Source: Flavobacteriaceae bacterium | GTDB taxonomy: Bacteria > Bacteroidota > Bacteroidia > Flavobacteriales > Flavobacteriaceae | DNA length: 34,421 nucleotides | Assembly: GCA_029861705.1 (NCBI GenBank) | Contig: JAOTYW010000004.1 | Location: 1-34,421 of the forward strand | Direction: 5' to 3' | Shown: positions 215 to 11,760 of the stretch, piece by piece | Layout of the letters: each line of letters begins with the position of its first letter | Numbering within the stretch: position 1 is the first letter of the stretch | Made by a program: the position numbers and the translations under genes | Notes under the pieces: model-generated | The model's database searches: none | Told to the model about the DNA's origin: nothing | Seen by the model: only the letters and a program-made list of their open reading frames with translations

Positions 215-3200
215 ATGAGCGCCATTTTTATAAGCCATTCCAGCAAAGACAATGCGTTTTGTGAGAAACTTATGGCTTGGTTAGATGGATTGGGGCATCG
301 TTCGGTGTTCCTGGATTTTGATGCCGAATCCGGTATAGAAGCCGGTACTAATTGGGAACAAAAACTCTATCGGGAACTCCGCTCCTGCAGGGCGGTGATT
401 GTGGTGTGTTCACAAAACCTGATCGATTCTAAATGGTGTTTTGCCGAGATCACCCAGGCACGTTCTCTGGGCAAACACATTTTTCCTTTAAAAATTGCAG
501 AATGTAAGATCGATTCCGTGCTTTCAGATTCGCAGATTGTTAATTTCCTGAAATTAGACGAAAAGGAAGCATTTGAACGTCTTAAAAAAGGATTGGAAAT
601 CGCCGGTATCGATGCTGAAGATCCCTTCGATTGGGATGGGAGCCGACCGCCATATCCGGGACTGCTTGCTTTTCAGGAAGCCGATGCCGCCATATTCTTC
701 GGGCGTGAAACGGAGATAGGCAACGGTCTGGATGTACTCAACAGCAAATACCGTTATGGGGGTTCTGGATTGGTAATGACCTTAGGGGCTTCGGGAAGTG
801 GAAAATCATCTCTTATTCGTGCCGGTATTGTGCCCCGATTAAAGCGTGATCCCGAGCGATGGTTAGTAGTTGATCCATTTCAACCAGGTGAACAGCCTTT
901 TATGGAATTGGCCAAAATATTATCGGTAGCATTCCAAAAATATGGCCGGAAGAAACTAAAGGCCAAGGATCTTTATGCGCGTCTATCGAGTCATGAGGTC
1001 ATAGAACCTCGGGCAAATGTTTCGAATGAACTAGCAGAAATCGAACAAGAGGTAGAAAATGTTCACGGCGCCTCTGAGATGGAGGAATTAGATCATGCGA
1101 TTAAGTCATTGGAAGGGCTGTTAGAGAACAATTCTATTGCTTCAGAAAAAGAGACACATAAGCTCCTACTCTCTAGTTTAAACAACTTGCAATCAAAGCA
1201 AAGCAAACTTGCTGCGGGTGACTCTAAAATCGAAACTGATAAAAACCCGGCTAAAGATACCGAATGGATTGCTGAATTACTTGACGCATCCGGAAGAGAA
1301 CAGGCCAGTTTATTGATTATCATCGATCAATTTGAGGAATTGCTCGAACGGCCACCGGATCACCCAGGCAGCCGGTTTTTGCATTTCCTTCGGGAATTGA
1401 TGGATCAGGAGAACAATCGCTTAATTGTACTTGGTACTATGCGGTCGGATTTCCTGGGTTCCTTTCAACAAAACCAGGCATTAGTCGGATTGGAATTTGG
1501 CCGCATCTTAGTGGGTCCGCTTGACGCTGCTTCACTTGTTGAGGTCATAGAAGAACCAGCTGATTTGGCAGGTGTGAAGATAGAACCAAAATTGTTACAA
1601 GCACTTATTGATGATGCCGGCACCGACGATGCCTTGCCACTCTTAGCCTTTACTTTAAGAGAATTATACGACAAGTTTTCGGAGGATAACCTATTAGATT
1701 ACAGGGAATATAAAGAAATGCTCGGCGGTATACAAGGTGCACTATCTAAGGCCGCAGAAAACGTTCTTAGCAATCCGCCATTGAGTGCAGAACAGGAAGT
1801 TCATTTAAGGCAGGCTTTTCTGTTTTTGGCACGTGTCAATGAGGATGGGAATTATACCCGGGAAGTAGCCAATTGGCTCGACATGCCAAAGCCAGTTCAT
1901 GATGTGCTCAAACGTTTGGTCGACGGGCGTTTGTTGGTTACAAAAGGAGGCGAAAATGGCGAAGAAACAATAGAGGTGGCCCACGAAACCCTATTCCGTT
2001 CCTGGGACCGCTTGCGAAACTGGTTGGACGAAGACCGGGAATTTTTATTGTGGAAGCGCAGGTTGAATAACTCTAAAGAAGAATGGCTGTATAGCAAAAA
2101 AGATAAAAGTGCACTGTTAACCGGGGGAATCTTATCGGAAGCCATGAATTGGCATAGGAGATATGAAATGCAACTTGATGCAGAAGAGCAAGAATTCATT
2201 CTTGCGAGTAAGAAATCAACGGCAAAACGAAATAAGAACCGCGCTTGGTTATTTGCTGGGGTTTTAATTATAATAACAAGCCTTGGGGCCCTTATGGGAG
2301 TTGGTTTTTATAATTCCAATAAAGAGTATAAAAGAGCTCAGGCTAATTATTTAATATCGGAAGCAAATAAAATAGTTGCGGCGGATCCTACTGTGGCAAT
2401 ACGACTAGCTGAGGCCGCACTTCAAATTCAACCACAAGACCCAACTATTATAGGTAGTACCTACGCAATTTATAATGATAACAACTTTTATAGTTTAGTT
2501 GCCACTGATTCAATGTCTTTAACTTCCTCAAGCTTTTCGCCAGATAGGCAGCATGTGTTGACCGGGTCGTTGGATGGGTCGATACGTTTGTGGGATCTCA
2601 AAGGAAATAGAATTCAAGAGTTTATAGGACATGATTCATTCATATCTTCCATGACATTTGACCCGGACGGAAAATACATTTTGACAGGCTCATGGGATAA
2701 AACGGCCCGTTTGTGGGATCTGCAGGGAAATACAGTTCAAGAATTTATCGGACATAATCTGGCAATATTCTCTGTAGCCATCGACCCGGGTGGTACCTAT
2801 GTGTTGACTGGCTCAATGGACAGCACTGCCCGTTTATGGGATCTGCAAGGAAACACTGTGCAAATATTCGAGGGTCATGATGCACCGGTAACATCCATGG
2901 CATTTGACCCAGCCGGGAGATACGTCCTGACAGGCTCAGGGGATAAGACCGCCCGTTTATGGGATCTGCAAGGAAATACACTTCAAGAATTTAAGGGACA
3001 TGATGGTGGGGTAACTTACGTGGCATTTGGTCCAGACGGAAAATATGTACTGACTGGCTCAGAGGATAAAACTGCCCGTTTATGGAATTTGGATGAAAAT
3101 ACATTTCAAGAATTTAGGGGCCATGATGAAGGGATATCTTCTATGACATTTGACCAGAGTGGGAAATACGTGTTGACTGGCTCAGATGATAAAACTGCCC

Positions 3201-4276
3201 GTTTGTGGGATCTGCAAGGAAATAGTATTCAAGAATTTAAAGGACATGATGAACGTGTACTTTCAGTGGCATTTGGCCCGGATGGGAAGTACATTTTGAC
3301 AGGCTCAGATGATAAAACTGCCCTCTTATGGGAGCTGCAAGATAAATCAATTCAAGTGTTCAAGGGTCATGAGGGGTCGGTAAAATCGGTGGCATTTGAC
3401 CCAGACGGGAAATACGTGTTGACAAGCTCAAGCGATAAATCGGCCCGCTTATGGGATTTACAAGGTACTATGATTCAAGAGTTTATTGGACATACATGGT
3501 CTGTAAATTCCATGGCAGTTGACCCAGGCGGAAAATACCTGTTAACAGGCTCCGGGGATATGGCGGCCCGCTTATGGGATCTGCAGGGAAACCCTATTAA
3601 GGTGTTTGAGGGACATGAACAGAGTGTACATTCCGTGGCATTTGATCCTGAAGGAAAATACATTTTGGCAGGCTTGGGTAAAAATGCGCATATGTGGGAT
3701 CTGCAAGGAAATACCATTCAAGAGTTTATGGGACACGAATTGGTAGTAAATTCCGCGATATTTGACCCAGATGGAAATTACGTACTGACCGGCTCTTTGG
3801 ATAATACAGCCCGATTATGGGATCTGCAGGGAAATACACTTCAAGTGTTTAGGGGACATGATGCAAATGTAATTTCCGTAGCCTTTGATCCAGAGGGAAA
3901 ATACGTGTTGACAGGTTCAGGAGATAAAACTGCCCGATTATGGGATCTGCAAGGAAATACACTTCAAGTGTTTAAGGGACATGATGCAAATGTATCTTGT
4001 GTGACATTTGACCCGAATGGTAAATACGTACTAACAGGTTCGTGGGATAATACGGCCCGTTTATGGGATCTGCAGGGAAATACGATTCAAGTTTTCAAAG
4101 GTCATTCTAATGTGGTGAATTCGGTGTCTTTTGACCCATCCGGGAAATATGTGTTGACCGGTTCAGGCGATAATACTGCCCTTTTGTGGGATATCCTTCC
4201 TGTATTAGATAAAATTAGTACGGCTAACATTGAACCACTATCCCCTGAACAGAAAATTAAATATGGGATTGAATAG
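215..4276 (+). CDS. TIR domain - nSTAND NTPase - transmembrane helix - WD40 (14-blade) protein, putative immune/conflict sensor-effector
   Basis: N-term MSAIFISHSSKDNAFCEKL...SKWCFAEI (TIR, catalytic-type Glu78); FFGRETEI and GASGSGKSS (Walker A); LLIIIDQFEELL (Walker B); hydrophobic WLFAGVLIIITSLGALMGVGF; 14 repeats of GH-x-SVAFDPDGKYVLTGSxDKTARLWD. Confidence 0.93.
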   Translation: MSAIFISHSSKDNAFCEKLMAWLDGLGHRSVFLDFDAESGIEAGTNWEQKLYRELRSCRAVIVVCSQNLIDSKWCFAEITQARSLGKHIFPLKIAECKIDSVLSDSQIVNFLKLDEKEAFERLKKGLEIAGIDAEDPFDWDGSRPPYPGLLAFQEADAAIFFGRETEIGNGLDVLNSKYRYGGSGLVMTLGASGSGKSSLIRAGIVPRLKRDPERWLVVDPFQPGEQPFMELAKILSVAFQKYGRKKLKAKDLYARLSSHEVIEPRANVSNELAEIEQEVENVHGASEMEELDHAIKSLEGLLENNSIASEKETHKLLLSSLNNLQSKQSKLAAGDSKIETDKNPAKDTEWIAELLDASGREQASLLIIIDQFEELLERPPDHPGSRFLHFLRELMDQENNRLIVLGTMRSDFLGSFQQNQALVGLEFGRILVGPLDAASLVEVIEEPADLAGVKIEPKLLQALIDDAGTDDALPLLAFTLRELYDKFSEDNLLDYREYKEMLGGIQGALSKAAENVLSNPPLSAEQEVHLRQAFLFLARVNEDGNYTREVANWLDMPKPVHDVLKRLVDGRLLVTKGGENGEETIEVAHETLFRSWDRLRNWLDEDREFLLWKRRLNNSKEEWLYSKKDKSALLTGGILSEAMNWHRRYEMQLDAEEQEFILASKKSTAKRNKNRAWLFAGVLIIITSLGALMGVGFYNSNKEYKRAQANYLISEANKIVAADPTVAIRLAEAALQIQPQDPTIIGSTYAIYNDNNFYSLVATDSMSLTSSSFSPDRQHVLTGSLDGSIRLWDLKGNRIQEFIGHDSFISSMTFDPDGKYILTGSWDKTARLWDLQGNTVQEFIGHNLAIFSVAIDPGGTYVLTGSMDSTARLWDLQGNTVQIFEGHDAPVTSMAFDPAGRYVLTGSGDKTARLWDLQGNTLQEFKGHDGGVTYVAFGPDGKYVLTGSEDKTARLWNLDENTFQEFRGHDEGISSMTFDQSGKYVLTGSDDKTARLWDLQGNSIQEFKGHDERVLSVAFGPDGKYILTGSDDKTALLWELQDKSIQVFKGHEGSVKSVAFDPDGKYVLTSSSDKSARLWDLQGTMIQEFIGHTWSVNSMAVDPGGKYLLTGSGDMAARLWDLQGNPIKVFEGHEQSVHSVAFDPEGKYILAGLGKNAHMWDLQGNTIQEFMGHELVVNSAIFDPDGNYVLTGSLDNTARLWDLQGNTLQVFRGHDANVISVAFDPEGKYVLTGSGDKTARLWDLQGNTLQVFKGHDANVSCVTFDPNGKYVLTGSWDNTARLWDLQGNTIQVFKGHSNVVNSVSFDPSGKYVLTGSGDNTALLWDILPVLDKISTANIEPLSPEQKIKYGIE
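2520..4200 (+). repeat. Tandem WD40-encoding repeats, 14 units, dominant period 123 bp (41 aa)
   Basis: Counted 14 YVLTGSxDKTARLWD-type units in the protein. DNA copies are near-identical, e.g. 3809-3871 vs 3932-3994 match at 61/63 positions with a 123-bp offset. Confidence 0.92.
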
Positions 4277-4277
4277 A

Positions 4278-4727
4278 TTATCCCTGACCAACACTTACTT
4301 CCTGAACCACAGTTCTGCTCCAATCGCCGTTCTCGGCGCGGATGATCCCTTCTACACGGCTTACGAGGATATTATAAGCCTCAGGCCGGTTATAAGGGGC
4401 CGTATTAGAGGCCCAGAGGTATTTTTCGCTTTTAAGTTGTTCCGAAGCCATGCGGTAATTGATCCACTTGTCCTTGAATTTTAATAATCCGGATACTGAA
4501 GATAAAATGGCCACTACAGCGCCAAGCACGCCAGTCATGATATTAGCCGAAATATTGATGACAGCGAACTCATCGAGCCCCGAGATCAAAGGGATCATAA
4601 CAGCGAGAATAATGGTGCTGATCTTAAAACGGTTATAATAGTTCTTGTTAAGCGTACTTTTATCGCTATACCATTTTTGCTGCCCATCGAGTCTTTTATT
4701 GATGTATTCAGAAGCTTCCATTTGCAT
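4278..4727 (-). CDS. SLATT / DUF4231-like small membrane protein
   Basis: 149 aa; N-terminal amphipathic segment (YINKRLDGQQKWYSDKSTLNKNYYNRFK), two TM segments (ISTIILAVMIPLISGL; NIMTGVLGAVVAILSSVSGLL), then FKDKWINYRMASEQLKSEKYLW, typical of SLATT/DUF4231. Confidence 0.82.
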   Translation of the reverse strand: MQMEASEYINKRLDGQQKWYSDKSTLNKNYYNRFKISTIILAVMIPLISGLDEFAVINISANIMTGVLGAVVAILSSVSGLLKFKDKWINYRMASEQLKSEKYLWASNTAPYNRPEAYNILVSRVEGIIRAENGDWSRTVVQEVSVGQG

Positions 4728-6778
4728 TAATTTGGTTCAATTATTATGCTCTTTGCCCCTATTTTCTCAATTTCCTCGATCATATGTTTTGTTCCCCCGG
4801 GGCCATCTGCTTCCTTCCCATCCCACAAGGCCAACAAAGTAATATTTCTACCCCCTGCCGCCATGGCAGAATACAAGATCCATAGATTATTCCGTTGCCA
4901 AAATGTGTAGCTGTTATCTTCCAGGCCCAACCACTGCGGCATTTCTTTAGTTTCGGACATGATATGAAGTGCAATATCAGGATCGCCATTCAGTGCATTA
5001 AACCGATCGACCCATTCATTACCACCCCGACGGACCGAATTCGCTATGAAATCCTCTTCTGGCAAAGACAACAGCATTTCTGATGGAATGCCTAACTCTT
5101 TGCACACTTCATGAAAAATAATGTCCCCGCCACAGGCACCACCTGCAATGCCCAGGAACTTGGCGCGGTTTGCCTCGGAAGAAGCTTCTTTGGTATTAGA
5201 AACCAAGGTTTTCAATTCAGCTTTTATCTTTTTCTTTACGGACTCCGCCTTATCATTTGGAAAACGGGTTTCTTTTCGTCCATCCTCATCGATCATATGA
5301 CCTGAAAATAGGATTACATGGAAATCAACTGATTCAGGTGGCTGAAATTCTCCTTCCTTGTAATGATCCAGGACGGCCGATACATTATCAGGCATGATGC
5401 CAAGCTTTTCGTACAACCTTATCTGCCTTAAGGCAGAGTACATATAAAATTCTTTGTTTTCCTGCTTGGCTACTTCAATCGCATCCTGATAGCGCCGTAC
5501 AACACGATCCGGATTACTATTTGTCAAAAGGGCAAATTCGGCATACGTAAGTTCCAGCCAAAGATCTTTTTGTTCCAGTTGATTCAGTTTGTTTTTATTT
5601 GTTTGTAGTGTTTTGCGAATTACCACAGTCAATATCTCGAATTCCTTTTTAAAGCGTTCCAGTGCGTGATCAGCTTCTTCATCCTCATCGTAGTTATTGC
5701 GCCATATACCAGGTTCGCGTTCGGCTAATTGCAGCATAATTTTGAGCAATCCCAGCGCATTGATAGCAGCATAGCATTCATTCAGATTTTCTTCGAATCC
5801 TTTTAAATAACTTTCGAATGCCTTGCTCAAATAACCGGAGCCAATAGCTTTTTTAGCCACCTCATCACCAGTTTCATCAAACCAGCCGGCAATCCATCTG
5901 CCCTTTTCATTCCGCCCTTTTAAGGAATATGCTTCGGTTATGTCTTTTGGTCTTAACTCCGCTTTTTGACTGATCAAAATTTCAATAGCCTTGTCTGACT
6001 TGGCATATAGTTCTTTCGCCAGATCAGGATGTATCTTCATCTCCACTTCGGCCATGCGTTGGTAGATGGTTGCCAGCCGGCTATGCGCTTGTATATCATT
6101 GTGTCTCAGGGACAAGATAGAATTCCAGGTATCTACGCCATGCCTGTGAAATCCTTTCTGAAATTGTATTTCACCAATCTGTCGTAAGGCAGGCAAGGCC
6201 CAGGTAAAATTAAAGCGCTGAACCTCGTAGGATAAAAGATTTAACATACCCCCCTCGTCATTCTTTGCCTTCTCCAGTTCCACTACAAATGAAGCCGGAA
6301 TGACTAAAAAATTCTCCGGTTCCTGTTTATTAAGTCCAGGTAGCATCCTAAAAACGGGACTGTCTGGATTATGACTTTCCAGGGTGGCCTTTACAGACTG
6401 ATATAAGGCATCTACCCCCGATCCCAGATCGTCAAGATCATAGGCCAGATAGCGATCGGTTTTTAGATCAAATGGAACGTCGTCCTTCCTGCAACGTATC
6501 AAAATGGTATTCTCATCGCGCAAAGCATGTCGGATGCCTAATTCATAGAATACATTGGCATTGTGTATGGAAATATCGGCAATCACCAGGTCGCTGGTAA
6601 GCAACAATTCAAACATATCCTGCCGGATATTACCGGCCTCCAGGATCTTGCCGGTTGTTTCTCCCGAAATACCCGCTTTGGTCAAAGCTGGAACGATCAA
6701 TTCGTTATGAACACGTTCAAAATCAATGTCCTTCTTTGTCCCAAAGGGTCGAACAATAAAAGCCGTAGATGTCGCCAT
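4727..6778 (-). CDS. TPR-S/TRAFs-binding-like scaffold protein with N-terminal deoxyribosyltransferase/DRHyd-like domain and C-terminal SLOG-like Rossmannoid domain
   Basis: N-term TAFIVRPFGTKKDIDFERVHNELIVPAL...SDLVIADISIHNANVFYELGIRHAL; central helical repeats (TPR-like); C-term VILFSGHMIDEDGRKETRFP...FLGIAGGACGGDIIFHEVCKELGIPSEMLLSLPEEDFIANSV. Confidence 0.78.
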   Translation of the reverse strand: MATSTAFIVRPFGTKKDIDFERVHNELIVPALTKAGISGETTGKILEAGNIRQDMFELLLTSDLVIADISIHNANVFYELGIRHALRDENTILIRCRKDDVPFDLKTDRYLAYDLDDLGSGVDALYQSVKATLESHNPDSPVFRMLPGLNKQEPENFLVIPASFVVELEKAKNDEGGMLNLLSYEVQRFNFTWALPALRQIGEIQFQKGFHRHGVDTWNSILSLRHNDIQAHSRLATIYQRMAEVEMKIHPDLAKELYAKSDKAIEILISQKAELRPKDITEAYSLKGRNEKGRWIAGWFDETGDEVAKKAIGSGYLSKAFESYLKGFEENLNECYAAINALGLLKIMLQLAEREPGIWRNNYDEDEEADHALERFKKEFEILTVVIRKTLQTNKNKLNQLEQKDLWLELTYAEFALLTNSNPDRVVRRYQDAIEVAKQENKEFYMYSALRQIRLYEKLGIMPDNVSAVLDHYKEGEFQPPESVDFHVILFSGHMIDEDGRKETRFPNDKAESVKKKIKAELKTLVSNTKEASSEANRAKFLGIAGGACGGDIIFHEVCKELGIPSEMLLSLPEEDFIANSVRRGGNEWVDRFNALNGDPDIALHIMSETKEMPQWLGLEDNSYTFWQRNNLWILYSAMAAGGRNITLLALWDGKEADGPGGTKHMIEEIEKIGAKSIIIEPN

Positions 6779-6781
6779 ATC

Positions 6782-7936
6782 TTATACAAATGATCCGAAA
6801 TGCTCCATTTTCACTTGGTTTTTGGCAGCAGCCATGCCTATATCCATTAGATCCTGAATATTATCGGGCTCGTCCATTTGCCGGATCTTTTTAGGGTCTA
6901 AATGTCCAAATCCCAGGTCTATCAGGCCTTGATCACTCAGGTCTGCGTTATAACGGACATATAGAAAATCTTTTTCCTTTTCCGATGAATAAATCATATC
7001 ATTTACTTCCCTGTCAATCTGGTCGCCAAACATACACCTGCCTGCCATACGGCAATTGAAATCCTGGTCGACTTGCATGGCATACATCAGATTATTGGGA
7101 ATATTCTTAATAATACCTCCCAGGTTGCGATAGCGGCCTTTAGTTGTGCCAGCACCCGTACCTAACGAAACTACTAATAGATCCTTTTCTCCTGTGGGCC
7201 AATTCAATTTATAGGCGGGCAAGGTCGACATTTTGTATAGCAAAAATGCCGGATTATTGTAAGGCGTAACACCCCCGTCGACAAAATCAAACGTTTTTGA
7301 GGGGTCATCTTTGTCCCATGATACAGTTTCTGAGGCAAAGAAGCTGGGTGCTGCTGTACTGGCCCTGACCAGCTGAAAAAGTTTTATTTTTTGATTGTTG
7401 TCCGGTCTTTCCTTGTTGTTGTATTTTGCAAATGGGTTATTGCTGATGGGCCATGGAGAATCTGTACTGCGATTCATGGTGACAACTGTCAAGAGCGATT
7501 TGAATTTTCCGTTGGCAATATCCATATCCGTGTCTGCACCATAAACTTCTTTCAACTTCTCAGTCAAGGGGCCTGATTTAAACTTAAATCCGCTAAAAAA
7601 CCATCCTAACAACGTATAGCGTGACTTGGCGAACATGGCCTTCCCATATTTTTTATAGAAATCCAATAAATCCTGCGCAGACATGCCAATCGCCAGTCCG
7701 GCGGCTATTATTGCCCCGGTACTCGTGCCTCCAAAATGATCGAAGTAATCACAAAGCCTGAAATCGTCTCCCCTTCCTAGTTTTTCCTTTAAGTCAGATT
7801 CTATTTTCGTCAGGATCCCCAACGTAAGAACACCTCTAATACCTCCCCCATCCAGGGCTAGTATTTTTCGGGGTTGTTTAGTCTCAAAACGAGGGGCCAG
7901 ATCGCCCCATAATGAAGAATTATTTTCGTCGGCCAT
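6782..7936 (-). CDS. Patatin-like phospholipase (CapV/CBASS-effector-like)
   Basis: ILALDGGGIRGVLTLGIL (oxyanion hole), FGGTSTGAIIAAGLA (GxSxG nucleophile), FVDGGVTPYNNPA (DGG catalytic Asp). Confidence 0.92.
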   Translation of the reverse strand: MADENNSSLWGDLAPRFETKQPRKILALDGGGIRGVLTLGILTKIESDLKEKLGRGDDFRLCDYFDHFGGTSTGAIIAAGLAIGMSAQDLLDFYKKYGKAMFAKSRYTLLGWFFSGFKFKSGPLTEKLKEVYGADTDMDIANGKFKSLLTVVTMNRSTDSPWPISNNPFAKYNNKERPDNNQKIKLFQLVRASTAAPSFFASETVSWDKDDPSKTFDFVDGGVTPYNNPAFLLYKMSTLPAYKLNWPTGEKDLLVVSLGTGAGTTKGRYRNLGGIIKNIPNNLMYAMQVDQDFNCRMAGRCMFGDQIDREVNDMIYSSEKEKDFLYVRYNADLSDQGLIDLGFGHLDPKKIRQMDEPDNIQDLMDIGMAAAKNQVKMEHFGSFV

Positions 7937-9094: not shown

Positions 9095-10351
9095 ATGAAC
9101 ATAAATTTCAGCCATATTCTCTATGATTATTTAGTTGAGCAGGGAATGGCCGAGAACCTTGCCAGCTATCTGAATGCCTTAGGCCTGCTAATCGCGGCCA
9201 TAGTCCTTGTTTATATTATCGACTTTATCGTATGGAAAATTTTCAGGCTCATTTCCGTACGCTTGGCAGGATTGACCAAAACCAGTTTTGATGATATCAT
9301 CATAAAAAATCGTGTGCCTCGTTACCTGGCGCATATCATCCCCCTGGCAATTCTCATGGAGCTACTACCCGCGGTTTTCATCGATTTTCAATATGCAGAA
9401 AACATTGCAGTCAAGATCGTATATATACTGGGCATTATACTGGTACTTTACATTGCCAGGAGCCTGCTGAACAGTATCCGGGATTATCTGAAAACTTTGA
9501 CGCAATTCCGGGATAAACCTATAGACAGTTATATTCAGGTGTTTATGATCTTTGCATGGATCGCCGGTCTGATGACCATTTTTGCAATCCTGACAGATAC
9601 GACCATCTGGAAATTCCTTACGGCCATGGGGGCCGCCTCGGCTATCATCCTCCTTGTCTTTAAAGATTCTATCCTTGGCTTTGTGGCCAGCATCCAGGTG
9701 AGCATCAACGACATGGTGCGTATCGGCGATTGGATCTCCTTTGAAAAGTATGGAGCAGACGGCGATGTCACAGAAATCAACCTGGCAACGGTAAAAGTCC
9801 AGAATTGGGACAAGACAATTACCACAATACCAACCTATGCGCTCATCTCCGATTCATTTAAGAATTGGAGGGGGATGTCAGAATCGGGTGGAAGGCGTAT
9901 TAAAAGAGCCATTATTATTAAACAAAAAGGTATCAAGTACCTGACCGAGGAAGATGTAGAGCGGTTAAAGGATGTACAGCTTATCAAAGATTATCTCATT
10001 TCAGCATCAGAAAAGATTAGGTCTTTTAACGAGCAAAATGAGATCGATACCTCACTCGCAATTAATGGTCGCCATCTGACCAACATAGGTGTGTTTAGAA
10101 AGTATATCCAAACCTACCTGGAAAAACACAGCGCCTTGAACAAGGAGATGACGCTGATGACGCGCCAACTTGATCCCACCCCTCAGGGAATCCCCATAGA
10201 GATCTATGCATTTAGCAGCGATCAGCGCTGGCAGAATTACGAATATATCATAGCCGATATATTTGATCATGTGCTGGCGGCCGTCCCTTACTTTGATCTT
10301 GAGATATTTGAGTTGCCCAGCTCACTGCAGTCCCAGACATTATCTTCTTAA
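9095..10351 (+). CDS. Mechanosensitive ion channel family protein (MscS/YbdG-like)
   Basis: Multiple TM helices, then the MscS core: MGAASAIILLVFKDSILGFVASIQVSINDMVRIGDWISFEKYGADGDVTEINLATVKVQNWDKTITTIPTYAL. Confidence 0.93.
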   Translation: MNINFSHILYDYLVEQGMAENLASYLNALGLLIAAIVLVYIIDFIVWKIFRLISVRLAGLTKTSFDDIIIKNRVPRYLAHIIPLAILMELLPAVFIDFQYAENIAVKIVYILGIILVLYIARSLLNSIRDYLKTLTQFRDKPIDSYIQVFMIFAWIAGLMTIFAILTDTTIWKFLTAMGAASAIILLVFKDSILGFVASIQVSINDMVRIGDWISFEKYGADGDVTEINLATVKVQNWDKTITTIPTYALISDSFKNWRGMSESGGRRIKRAIIIKQKGIKYLTEEDVERLKDVQLIKDYLISASEKIRSFNEQNEIDTSLAINGRHLTNIGVFRKYIQTYLEKHSALNKEMTLMTRQLDPTPQGIPIEIYAFSSDQRWQNYEYIIADIFDHVLAAVPYFDLEIFELPSSLQSQTLSS

Positions 10352-11760
10352 TTCGGATCACAATTCGTAAAGTTAGGTTTGGGGCGTACCCATTGGGGGG
10401 TGTTTTCGCTAAAAGAACCGCAAAGAATTACATTGTCTACATTCCAACCACTTAGATCTTGGTTAAATGAAGTAAAATAAAACATCCTATTCATGTACAT
10501 TACATTACTCACATCCCAGGCACTGATATCCTGGTTGAAGGAAGATGTTGAAAACATATAGCTCATATTATTAACACTACTTACATCCCAAGAACTGATA
10601 TCTTGATTGAATTCTGACCCAGAGAACATGTAGCTCATATTAGTTACATTGCCAACATCCCAGGTACCGATATCCTGGTCAAATGGGACAGGTTCACCAG
10701 AATTAAACTCGTTACCATTATCAAACATTCTAGACATATTTGTAACCTGACTTACATCCCAATTCCCAATCGGTTGGTTGAAGCGTGAACTTGTGAACAT
10801 TCTGGACATATCCGTAACATGACTAACATTCCAGTCTCCTATAGGCTGATTGAATTCTGATCCAAAAAACATGTAGCTCATATCCATAACATTACTGACA
10901 TCCCAGGAGCTGATATCCTCATTGAATGAAGAATATTGGAACAGTTCACTCATATTGGTAACTTTGGTAGTACAAACATTGGGTACATTATCTCCGGATG
11001 TTACTAATTGCCTTAATTGTAATTCATCAACGATTGTATAGGCTGTTCCATCTACTACACCCATGTCCCCCACTTCGGCCCATTCGTAACATTTGATAGT
11101 TATCCCATTTTCATCCAAATAAATAGGGGAAGGTGATGGACATCCATATTCACCAACTATTTCTCCTTGTGAAGTATCAAGACATAGGTCAATATCATCT
11201 GTTACACCATCGCCATCAGTGTCTTTTTGGGAATCTGAACAGCCATTCTCATCAATAAGCTGACCCGACGGTGTGTCCGGACAGGAATCAGAGATGTCAG
11301 GTATTCCGTCCCAATCAGAATCTCTTTCGGAATCAGAACATCCATTTTCATCGACTTCTTCACCCTGTGGGGTATCCCAACAGAGATCCAAATCATCTGT
11401 TACCCCATCTTTATCTGAATCTAGTTTTTCAAAAACACAAGTGATATTCTTATCTGAATCCATGGTGACAGATACTGGATTATCTGTGCTTTGCACGCTC
11501 CCTGTCCACTCAGAGAATGAATACCCAGAACTGGGGTCCGCAACTAAATAGACCACAGATCCCGCTTCATGCAATCTATTCAAGACATAAAATCTATCCA
11601 AGCCGGTAATGGTTCCTGCTCCTGTCGGCGTAACAGTAGTTGACAGGGCATATTGTACCGGTAGATCCTCGCCTTCAGGATCTTTGGAACAGGCCATTAT
11701 CAGAACTGTTAATACAAAGAATAGAACTCGGGAAAAAGATGGATGTAATACATTATACAT
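10348..11760 (-). CDS. BspA-family (DUF285) repeat surface lipoprotein with thrombospondin type 3-like Ca-binding repeats
   Basis: Lipobox LIMAC-SKDPEG; SDKDGVTDDLDLCWDTPQG TSP3-like repeats; repeated FNQDISSWDVSNVTNMSYMF units. Confidence 0.87.
   Translation of the reverse strand: MYNVLHPSFSRVLFFVLTVLIMACSKDPEGEDLPVQYALSTTVTPTGAGTITGLDRFYVLNRLHEAGSVVYLVADPSSGYSFSEWTGSVQSTDNPVSVTMDSDKNITCVFEKLDSDKDGVTDDLDLCWDTPQGEEVDENGCSDSERDSDWDGIPDISDSCPDTPSGQLIDENGCSDSQKDTDGDGVTDDIDLCLDTSQGEIVGEYGCPSPSPIYLDENGITIKCYEWAEVGDMGVVDGTAYTIVDELQLRQLVTSGDNVPNVCTTKVTNMSELFQYSSFNEDISSWDVSNVMDMSYMFFGSEFNQPIGDWNVSHVTDMSRMFTSSRFNQPIGNWDVSQVTNMSRMFDNGNEFNSGEPVPFDQDIGTWDVGNVTNMSYMFSGSEFNQDISSWDVSSVNNMSYMFSTSSFNQDISAWDVSNVMYMNRMFYFTSFNQDLSGWNVDNVILCGSFSENTPQWVRPKPNFTNCDPN

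What the first reader, a model, noticed from the sequence alone, without database searches (positions are those of the whole stretch)
215..7936. Candidate undescribed immune/conflict locus: TIR-nSTAND-WD40 converging on a patatin / TPR-S-SLOG / SLATT triad
Seen directly: four adjacent genes with 1-3 bp spacing or overlap, encoding a TIR-STAND-TM-WD40 sensor (+) and a minus-strand triad of patatin, a DRHyd-like/TPR-S/SLOG-like protein and SLATT. Established knowledge (from memory): TIR domains can hydrolyse NAD+ or make NAD-derived signals. Burroughs and Aravind predicted that TPR-S scaffolds, later recruited to the animal ASK signalosome, recognise NAD+-derived signals. SLATT proteins are predicted membrane effectors, and patatins (CapV) are CBASS phospholipase effectors. 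Inference: the WD40/STAND module senses an invader, the TIR makes a nucleotide signal, the TPR-S/SLOG protein reads it, and patatin plus SLATT breach the membrane to cause abortive infection. I do not recall a named, tested system with this exact four-gene layout, but I cannot search.
Basis: partly seen in the sequence, partly recalled or inferred. Interest (0 to 1): 0.93.

Follow-up and report, generated by a model that had tools for sequence, protein, structure and literature searches.

The report
Modular bacterial TIR–phospholipase–SLATT immune locus
A bacterium carries four packed genes (an alarm sensor with a signal-making enzyme, a signal-reading hub, a lipid-cutting enzyme and a membrane pore protein) whose parts travel together in many unrelated bacteria, so this is very probably a modular anti-virus self-destruct system built around a hub protein that no database used here names as an immune system.

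Summary
Four genes lie at 215-7936 with gaps of 1, -1 and 3 bp. They encode TIR-nSTAND1-TM-WD40 (+) and, converging on it (-), patatin, a DRHyd-TPR-S-SLOG hub and SLATT. Pfam/NCBIfam confirm TIR, nSTAND1, WD40, SLATT, TPR-S and patatin. SLOG is supported by a modelled fold, and DRHyd by a weak but exact match to DNPH1's catalytic motif.

A survey of 80 full-length hub relatives (64 clusters, many phyla) shows a core of hub plus patatin: 38/64 clusters, always within 2 kb. TIR genes are about 9-fold enriched within 2 kb. SLATT sits almost only where a TIR does (10/11 rows against 15/73 without SLATT), and nSTAND always does (10/10). Patatin is indifferent to TIR. All four functions recur in Flavobacteriaceae and in a distant Bacteroidota clade. 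The nearest relative keeps the convergent layout, though cut by its contig end.

Its linear pathway is not: hub plus patatin usually stands without TIR, and a 68% identical TIR-STAND-WD40 gene occurs alone. I favour a two-armed, threshold-gated abortive system. No phage or enzyme assay exists. It is a new variant of a predicted kind (TPR-S/NAD-signal systems).

The parts
215..4276 (+). TIR-nSTAND1-TM-WD40 protein, 1353 aa; candidate membrane-anchored sensor and signal enzyme
   Evidence: ORF; Pfam; relatives beside the hub in L068, L081, L082, L102, L109, L142; alone in L236
224..583 (+). TIR domain; putative catalytic Glu78 at 446-448
   Evidence: TIR_2 match; Glu conserved in 31 of 33 aligned TIR rows
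650..2107 (+). nSTAND1 NTPase domain (residues 146-631)
   Evidence: PF20703 E 6e-92
2249..2305 (+). single TM segment (residues 679-697) with basic N-terminal flank; WD40 part predicted outside by the positive-inside rule
   Evidence: hydropathy scan; TM also in 9 of 10 other nSTAND/WD40 partners scanned
2537..4204 (+). WD40 repeats (about residues 775-1330), candidate ligand-sensing propellers
   Evidence: PF00400, 14 stretches
4278..4727 (-). SLATT (2TM, DUF4231/SLATT_1) predicted pore-type membrane effector, 149 aa
   Evidence: Pfam and NCBIfam; two TM segments
4727..6778 (-). DRHyd-TPR-S-SLOG hub protein, 683 aa
   Evidence: AlphaFold2 model pLDDT 92.8
6329..6775 (-). DRHyd-like nucleotide hydrolase domain; invariant N73, N75, Y78, E79, D104 (E79 codon 6542-6544)
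   Evidence: 62/62 conservation; DNPH1-type alignment, E 0.15-0.34; PADLOC 'TIR effector' model in 61/62 members
5354..6301 (-). helical TPR region including the Pfam TPR-S match (5747-6133)
   Evidence: PF20308 E 3.5e-10; all-helical in the model
4730..5344 (-). SLOG domain (residues 479-683), probable nucleotide-ligand binder
   Evidence: model; fold matches; invariant D497, G550, W589, R629, W633
6782..7936 (-). patatin-like phospholipase, 384 aa; GGGxRG, Ser72 (7721-7723), Asp220 (7277-7279)
   Evidence: Pfam; CBASS-lipase-like below cut-off; PDB profile hit CapV 8zr9 2e-34; Ser and Asp in 40/40

Best explanation
The locus is a modular, threshold-gated, abortive-infection-type immune system. 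Its core is the DRHyd-TPR-S-SLOG hub plus the patatin. The hub's DRHyd domain cleaves a nucleotide and/or its TPR-S/SLOG parts bind a nucleotide-derived ligand; the ligand-bound hub then switches on the patatin, which cuts membrane phospholipids. A second, optional arm is added here: the membrane-anchored TIR-nSTAND-WD40 protein detects a trigger, oligomerises through the STAND domain, and its TIR makes an ADP-ribose-type signal that opens SLATT in the membrane and probably also feeds the hub. Shown by sequence: gene set, linkage, conserved active-site residues, domain folds, co-occurrence pattern. Inferred: phage as trigger, identity of the signals, who activates whom, cell death as outcome.
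For: Hub relatives in 64 clusters from Bacteroidota, Proteobacteria, Acidobacteria, Nitrospira, Planctomycetes, Actinobacteria and others. Patatin within 2 kb in 38/64 and never farther; TIR 19 genes in 240 kb near against 4 in 482 kb far; SLATT 7 against 1; nSTAND 5 against 1. In the reverse direction, 8 of 9 close patatin relatives in 396 Bacteroidota genomes adjoin a DRHyd-TPR-S gene. SLATT tracks TIR (10/11 v 15/73, p 1e-5), nSTAND tracks TIR (10/10, p 1e-6), patatin does not; on the hub tree TIR changes at least 18 times, SLATT 8, nSTAND 7. Full sets: window, L068, L052, L053, and a caspase-lipase-TPR-S variant L241 with patatin, SLATT, SIR2-TIR and nSTAND. Rhizobium plasmid L227 carries separate SLOG, DRHyd, SLATT, patatin, DRHyd-TPR-S and convergent TIR genes. 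Catalytic residues kept: TIR Glu, DRHyd E79, patatin Ser/Asp. In the SLOG, the acidic residue after PGGT (E669 in the window) is present in only 16/62, which fits a binder rather than an enzyme. Published predictions: SLATT as ADPr-regulated membrane effector beside TIR in phages (PMC9503650) and with nucleotide enzymes (PMC7159879).
Against: No phage, NAD or lipid assay. Co-occurrence shows partnership, not the order of steps. Row counts are not phylogenetically independent: in independent pairs TIR and SLATT agree about 3.5 to 0, not significant. No TIR lies within 5 kb of most patatin-hub pairs, so either the TIR arm is dispensable or signals come from elsewhere. The flanking genes in this window are housekeeping, not a defence island. 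Other stress-triggered or interbacterial-conflict roles fit the same parts.
Confidence: 0.6

Rival explanations
1. One reading: the TIR makes the only signal, the TPR-S/SLOG hub reads it, and both patatin and SLATT are its outputs.
For: TIR enriched beside the hub; TIR Glu conserved; SLOG fold in the hub; SLOG reading a TIR product is established for Thoeris ThsA (own knowledge).
Against: 36 of 52 scored patatin-bearing rows lack a TIR within 5 kb, and patatin does not track TIR; the hub has its own conserved DRHyd active site; the TIR-STAND gene exists alone.
Confidence: 0.25
2. Two independent systems that happen to abut: a stand-alone TIR-nSTAND-WD40 defence gene and a patatin/TPR-S/SLATT operon, with no crosstalk.
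For: L236: a TIR-STAND-WD40 gene, 68% identical over TIR-STAND, stands alone among metabolic genes; opposite strands here.
Against: The convergent WD40 gene is kept beside SLATT in L067; TIR/nSTAND are co-directional with the triad in L068 and L052/L053; nSTAND and SLATT occur beside the hub together with TIR.
Confidence: 0.2
3. Not antiviral: an envelope-stress or programmed-death switch, with the WD40 part outside the membrane sensing envelope damage.
For: nSTAND partners have a TM segment with a basic N-terminal flank, and their C-terminal parts are WD40, PKD or CarboxypepD_reg folds; the effectors act on membranes; the locus lies among housekeeping genes.
Against: Patchy distribution with repeated gains and losses on the hub tree, presence on a conjugative plasmid, and CBASS/Thoeris-like parts fit conflict better.
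Confidence: 0.15

Closest known systems
TPR-S (MAP3K/ASK-related) nucleotide-signal systems predicted by Burroughs and Aravind 2020 (J Bacteriol; paper not held, recalled)
   Same: The hub has the Pfam TPR-S domain, described from memory as a predicted NAD-signal sensor scaffold, with conflict-type partners
   Different: I could not read the paper, so I cannot say whether this exact DRHyd-TPR-S-SLOG plus patatin pairing is listed; no experimental system was found in the library
Thoeris (TIR ThsB + SIR2-SLOG ThsA)
   Same: Catalytic-type TIR next to a SLOG-domain protein; effector arm expected to be signal-activated
   Different: No SIR2 NADase effector; the SLOG is fused to DRHyd-TPR-S; effectors are patatin and SLATT; TIR is fused to STAND-WD40. 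Thoeris TIR models match only weakly
CBASS with CapV phospholipase
   Same: Patatin of the CapV kind: PDB profile hit 8zr9, PADLOC phospholipase effector models
   Different: No CD-NTase seen in the locus; NCBIfam CBASS_lipase score 112 against cut-off 200
TIR-SLATT gene pairs in phages and conflict systems (PMC9503650, PMC7159879)
   Same: SLATT accompanies TIR, as found here across hub loci
   Different: Here both are added to a hub-patatin core
TIR-STAND/NLR-like defence proteins
   Same: TIR-nSTAND1 plus repeat domain architecture
   Different: nSTAND1 family with TM and WD40; PADLOC TIR-NLR model matches only the TIR part

Membership tests
TPR-S nucleotide-signal conflict systems | TPR-S domain above the Pfam gathering score | tested here: met
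   40.8 bits against 27.6
TPR-S nucleotide-signal conflict systems | neighbouring nucleotide/NAD enzyme and effector genes, recurrently | tested here: met
   patatin, TIR, SLATT, nSTAND enrichment near the hub
TPR-S nucleotide-signal conflict systems | binding of an NAD-derived or nucleotide ligand by the hub | not testable with these tools
   needs purified protein; SLOG fold supports it indirectly
Thoeris | ThsB-type TIR above family cut-off | tested here: inconclusive
   ThsB_TIR 28.8 bits, above 21.2, but TIR_2 fits much better (78.4 bits)
Thoeris | ThsA (SIR2-SLOG) effector | tested here: not met
   no SIR2 domain in the four proteins
CBASS | CD-NTase synthase in the locus | tested here: not met
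   no CD-NTase match in the four genes or the SDR gene beside them, nor among the ten further window genes scanned with Pfam; the few remaining small ORFs and sequence left of base 1 were not seen
CBASS | CBASS lipase equivalog | tested here: not met
   112 bits against cut-off 200
SLATT | SLATT profile and two TM segments | tested here: met
   NCBIfam SLATT_1 120.7 against 41 bits; two TM
SLOG superfamily | Rossmann-like SLOG fold | tested here: met
   probability 1.00 matches to DprA-like and YspA/YpsA SLOG models, best E 4.5e-7 to an unnamed viral protein; PDB matches weaker, E 0.003-0.04
DRHyd (DNPH1-like) | catalytic YELG glutamate in a nucleotide hydrolase fold | tested here: inconclusive
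   E79 aligned to the DNPH1 glutamate but E 0.15-0.34
PADLOC named systems | complete match to a catalogued system | tested here: not met
   only single-protein partial matches; DefenseFinder not available

The most novel reading that the evidence does not exclude
A distinct, untested immune class in which one DRHyd-TPR-S-SLOG protein both makes and reads its own nucleotide signal to fire a phospholipase, with a plug-in TIR-STAND/SLATT arm, a bacterial counterpart of the animal ASK signalosome scaffold.
Probability: 0.3. Interest if true: 0.85.

Novelty: new variant of a known kind. Interest (0 to 1): 0.62.

Why it matters
TPR-S is known as a Pfam domain and, from memory, as a prediction linked to the animal ASK (MAP3K) signalosome. 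The survey gives a defined minimal unit (hub plus patatin) found in many phyla and a separable TIR/STAND/SLATT arm, which turns that prediction into a system that can be tested with two to four genes. It also adds a likely case of phospholipase immunity not tied to a CD-NTase.

Tried and rejected
Single-sequence search of viral contigs found nothing; the profile search of viral contigs gave only DRHyd-containing partial relatives. Full-length Foldseek of the hub was swamped by TPR proteins, so the SLOG part was modelled alone. PDB profile search with the SLOG alignment gave only chance hits. A Bacteroidetes-type promoter search gave one hit, outside the locus and at chance level; sigma-70-type and terminator-like sites were near the number in shuffles. 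I considered that SLATT was missed in many loci: a Pfam tally of 92 unclassified co-directional neighbours showed no SLATT among the 25 families listed (only the 25 most frequent of 94 are shown) and no dominant missing partner; CAP12-type TIR (3), LCAT lipase (2) and GH19 (2) appeared. CBASS and Thoeris membership was tested and rejected. Library papers for TPR-S, patatin-SLATT or this gene set: none found; the two founding papers are not held. Right-flank comparison with a same-genus genome (G001) shows the SDR and channel genes kept without the cassette beside them, but the left flank is missing, so the empty site could not be defined.

Full report
OBSERVATION. The stop of the + gene (4276) and that of SLATT (4278) are 1 bp apart, SLATT overlaps the hub gene by 1 bp, and the hub gene and patatin are 3 bp apart. 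Pfam: TIR_2, nSTAND1 and 14 WD40 stretches; SLATT_1/DUF4231; TPR-S; Patatin. PADLOC gave no named system. The window begins at the contig end, so anything before base 1 is unseen. The rest of the window is ordinary (SDR, MscS-type channel, T9SS, OmpA, histidine kinase).

HUB PROTEIN. The 683-aa middle protein has three parts. The first 150 residues contain N73, N75, Y78, E79, R83, H84 and D104 in 62 of 62 aligned relatives. A profile of this part matches DNPH1, a deoxynucleotide N-hydrolase, below significance (E 0.15-0.34) but with E79 on the YELG glutamate, which is the catalytic one in DNPH1 (own knowledge). The middle is helical and holds Pfam TPR-S. The last 205 residues model at pLDDT 91.6; the viral model library returns DprA-like and YspA/YpsA SLOG proteins at probability 1.00, and the most probable PDB matches are TM1055, ShosA, DprA and, weaker, the TRPM2 channel. 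The PGGT motif of SLOG/LOG proteins is kept, but E669 after it is present in only 16 of 62, so I infer binding rather than catalysis.

SURVEY. A profile scan of one genome per species returned 513 relatives, of which the best 80 are full-length or nearly so and come from many phyla; they form 64 clusters at 70% identity. Near (under 2 kb) against far (4.5-10 kb), gene counts were: patatin 38 v 0, TIR 19 v 4, SLATT 7 v 1, nSTAND 5 v 1, with 240 kb near and 482 kb far. In reverse, 8 of 9 patatins with E below 1e-40 among 396 Bacteroidota genomes sit beside a DRHyd-TPR-S gene. The window's nearest relative, L067 (Robiginitalea MAG), keeps patatin (84%), hub (71%), SLATT (73%) and a convergent WD40/TM gene (52%) cut by the contig end, with two extra genes between hub and SLATT. 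L068 has TIR, nSTAND-WD40, patatin, hub and SLATT on one strand. L052/L053, from a distant Bacteroidota clade, have SIR2-TIR, nSTAND, SLATT, hub and patatin on one strand. L102 has hub, TIR-nSTAND-WD40, SLATT; L081 and L082 have patatin, hub, TIR, nSTAND. A Rhizobium conjugative plasmid has the parts as separate genes with convergent TIR genes.

COUNTER-EVIDENCE. Genome G693 has a TIR-STAND-WD40 gene (68% identical over the TIR-STAND part) alone among metabolic genes. The same genome has, on another contig, a caspase-lipase-TPR-S gene near patatin, SLATT, SIR2-TIR and nSTAND. So the sensor is a movable module, and the TPR-S hub can swap its N-terminal enzyme.

WHICH PARTS BELONG TOGETHER. Over 85 rows, SLATT goes with TIR (10 of 11 against 15 of 73 rows without SLATT), nSTAND goes with TIR (10 of 10), and patatin is independent of TIR (16 of 25 rows with TIR, 36 of 59 without). 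Related rows are not independent; on the tree TIR changes at least 18 times, SLATT 8 and nSTAND 7, and independent pairs agree about 3.5 to 0 for TIR-SLATT, not significant. The tree was a quick one with a long-branch warning at L146. I read this as a hub-patatin core with an optional TIR/nSTAND/SLATT arm.

MECHANISM. Shown: active-site residues kept in TIR (31 of 33 rows), DRHyd and patatin; TM anchoring of 9 of 10 other nSTAND/WD40 partners scanned, with basic residues on the N-terminal side in most. Inferred: WD40 part outside the inner membrane, STAND oligomerisation, a TIR-derived ADP-ribose signal, ligand-gated hub, patatin activation, SLATT pore, cell death. Published support for SLATT as a predicted ADPr-regulated membrane effector beside TIR is in PMC9503650 and for SLATT with nucleotide enzymes in PMC7159879.

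NOVELTY. Neither CBASS nor Thoeris defining sets are met (membership table). The TPR-S idea is published (recalled; paper not held), and the Pfam family exists. I therefore file it as a new variant of a predicted kind. Limits: search patterns lay in the DRHyd part, so hubs without it were not sampled; gene calls in the survey are simple ORFs; only the best 80 of 513 hits were kept; co-occurrence cannot order steps.

Noticed in passing
L236 6492-10994 and L241 2-11185 (genome G693): A TIR-STAND-WD40 gene (68% identical over TIR-STAND) stands alone, while another contig has a caspase-esterase-TPR-S gene near patatin, SLATT, SIR2-TIR and nSTAND-PKD: a second TPR-S hub type with the same partners.
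   Followed up: partly
L067 12131-14960: Two minus-strand genes, one matching Dyp-type peroxidase domains (DyP_N 5.8e-10), sit between hub and SLATT in the nearest relative.
   Followed up: partly
L147-L226 (viral contigs), phage hits H61-H90: Short DRHyd-containing relatives of the hub occur in Staphylococcus and Streptococcus phages and many viral contigs; role unknown.
   Followed up: no
L089 12315-14751 and Bradyrhizobium relatives L090-L097: Hub-patatin pair followed by a conserved 148-157 aa protein of unknown family and an HSP90-like protein in most of these Bradyrhizobium genomes.
   Followed up: no
L059 8264-17999 and L062 3-10390: Run of two nSTAND genes, a 268-aa protein and a SLOG-containing protein of another type, without patatin.
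   Followed up: no
L227 5300-6151; L068 12951-13601; L241 6032-7285: Peptidoglycan-type genes (DUF3380, GH19-like, PG-binding) recur in or next to hub loci, hinting at a further wall-directed effector.
   Followed up: no
L237 27-1376 (G000 contig C98): The window's own genome has a TIR gene elsewhere whose start resembles SIR2-TIR proteins of L052/L241.
   Followed up: no
window 10348-11760: Surface-type protein with DUF285 and InlB-B-like repeats near the locus; not linked to it by any evidence here.
   Followed up: no
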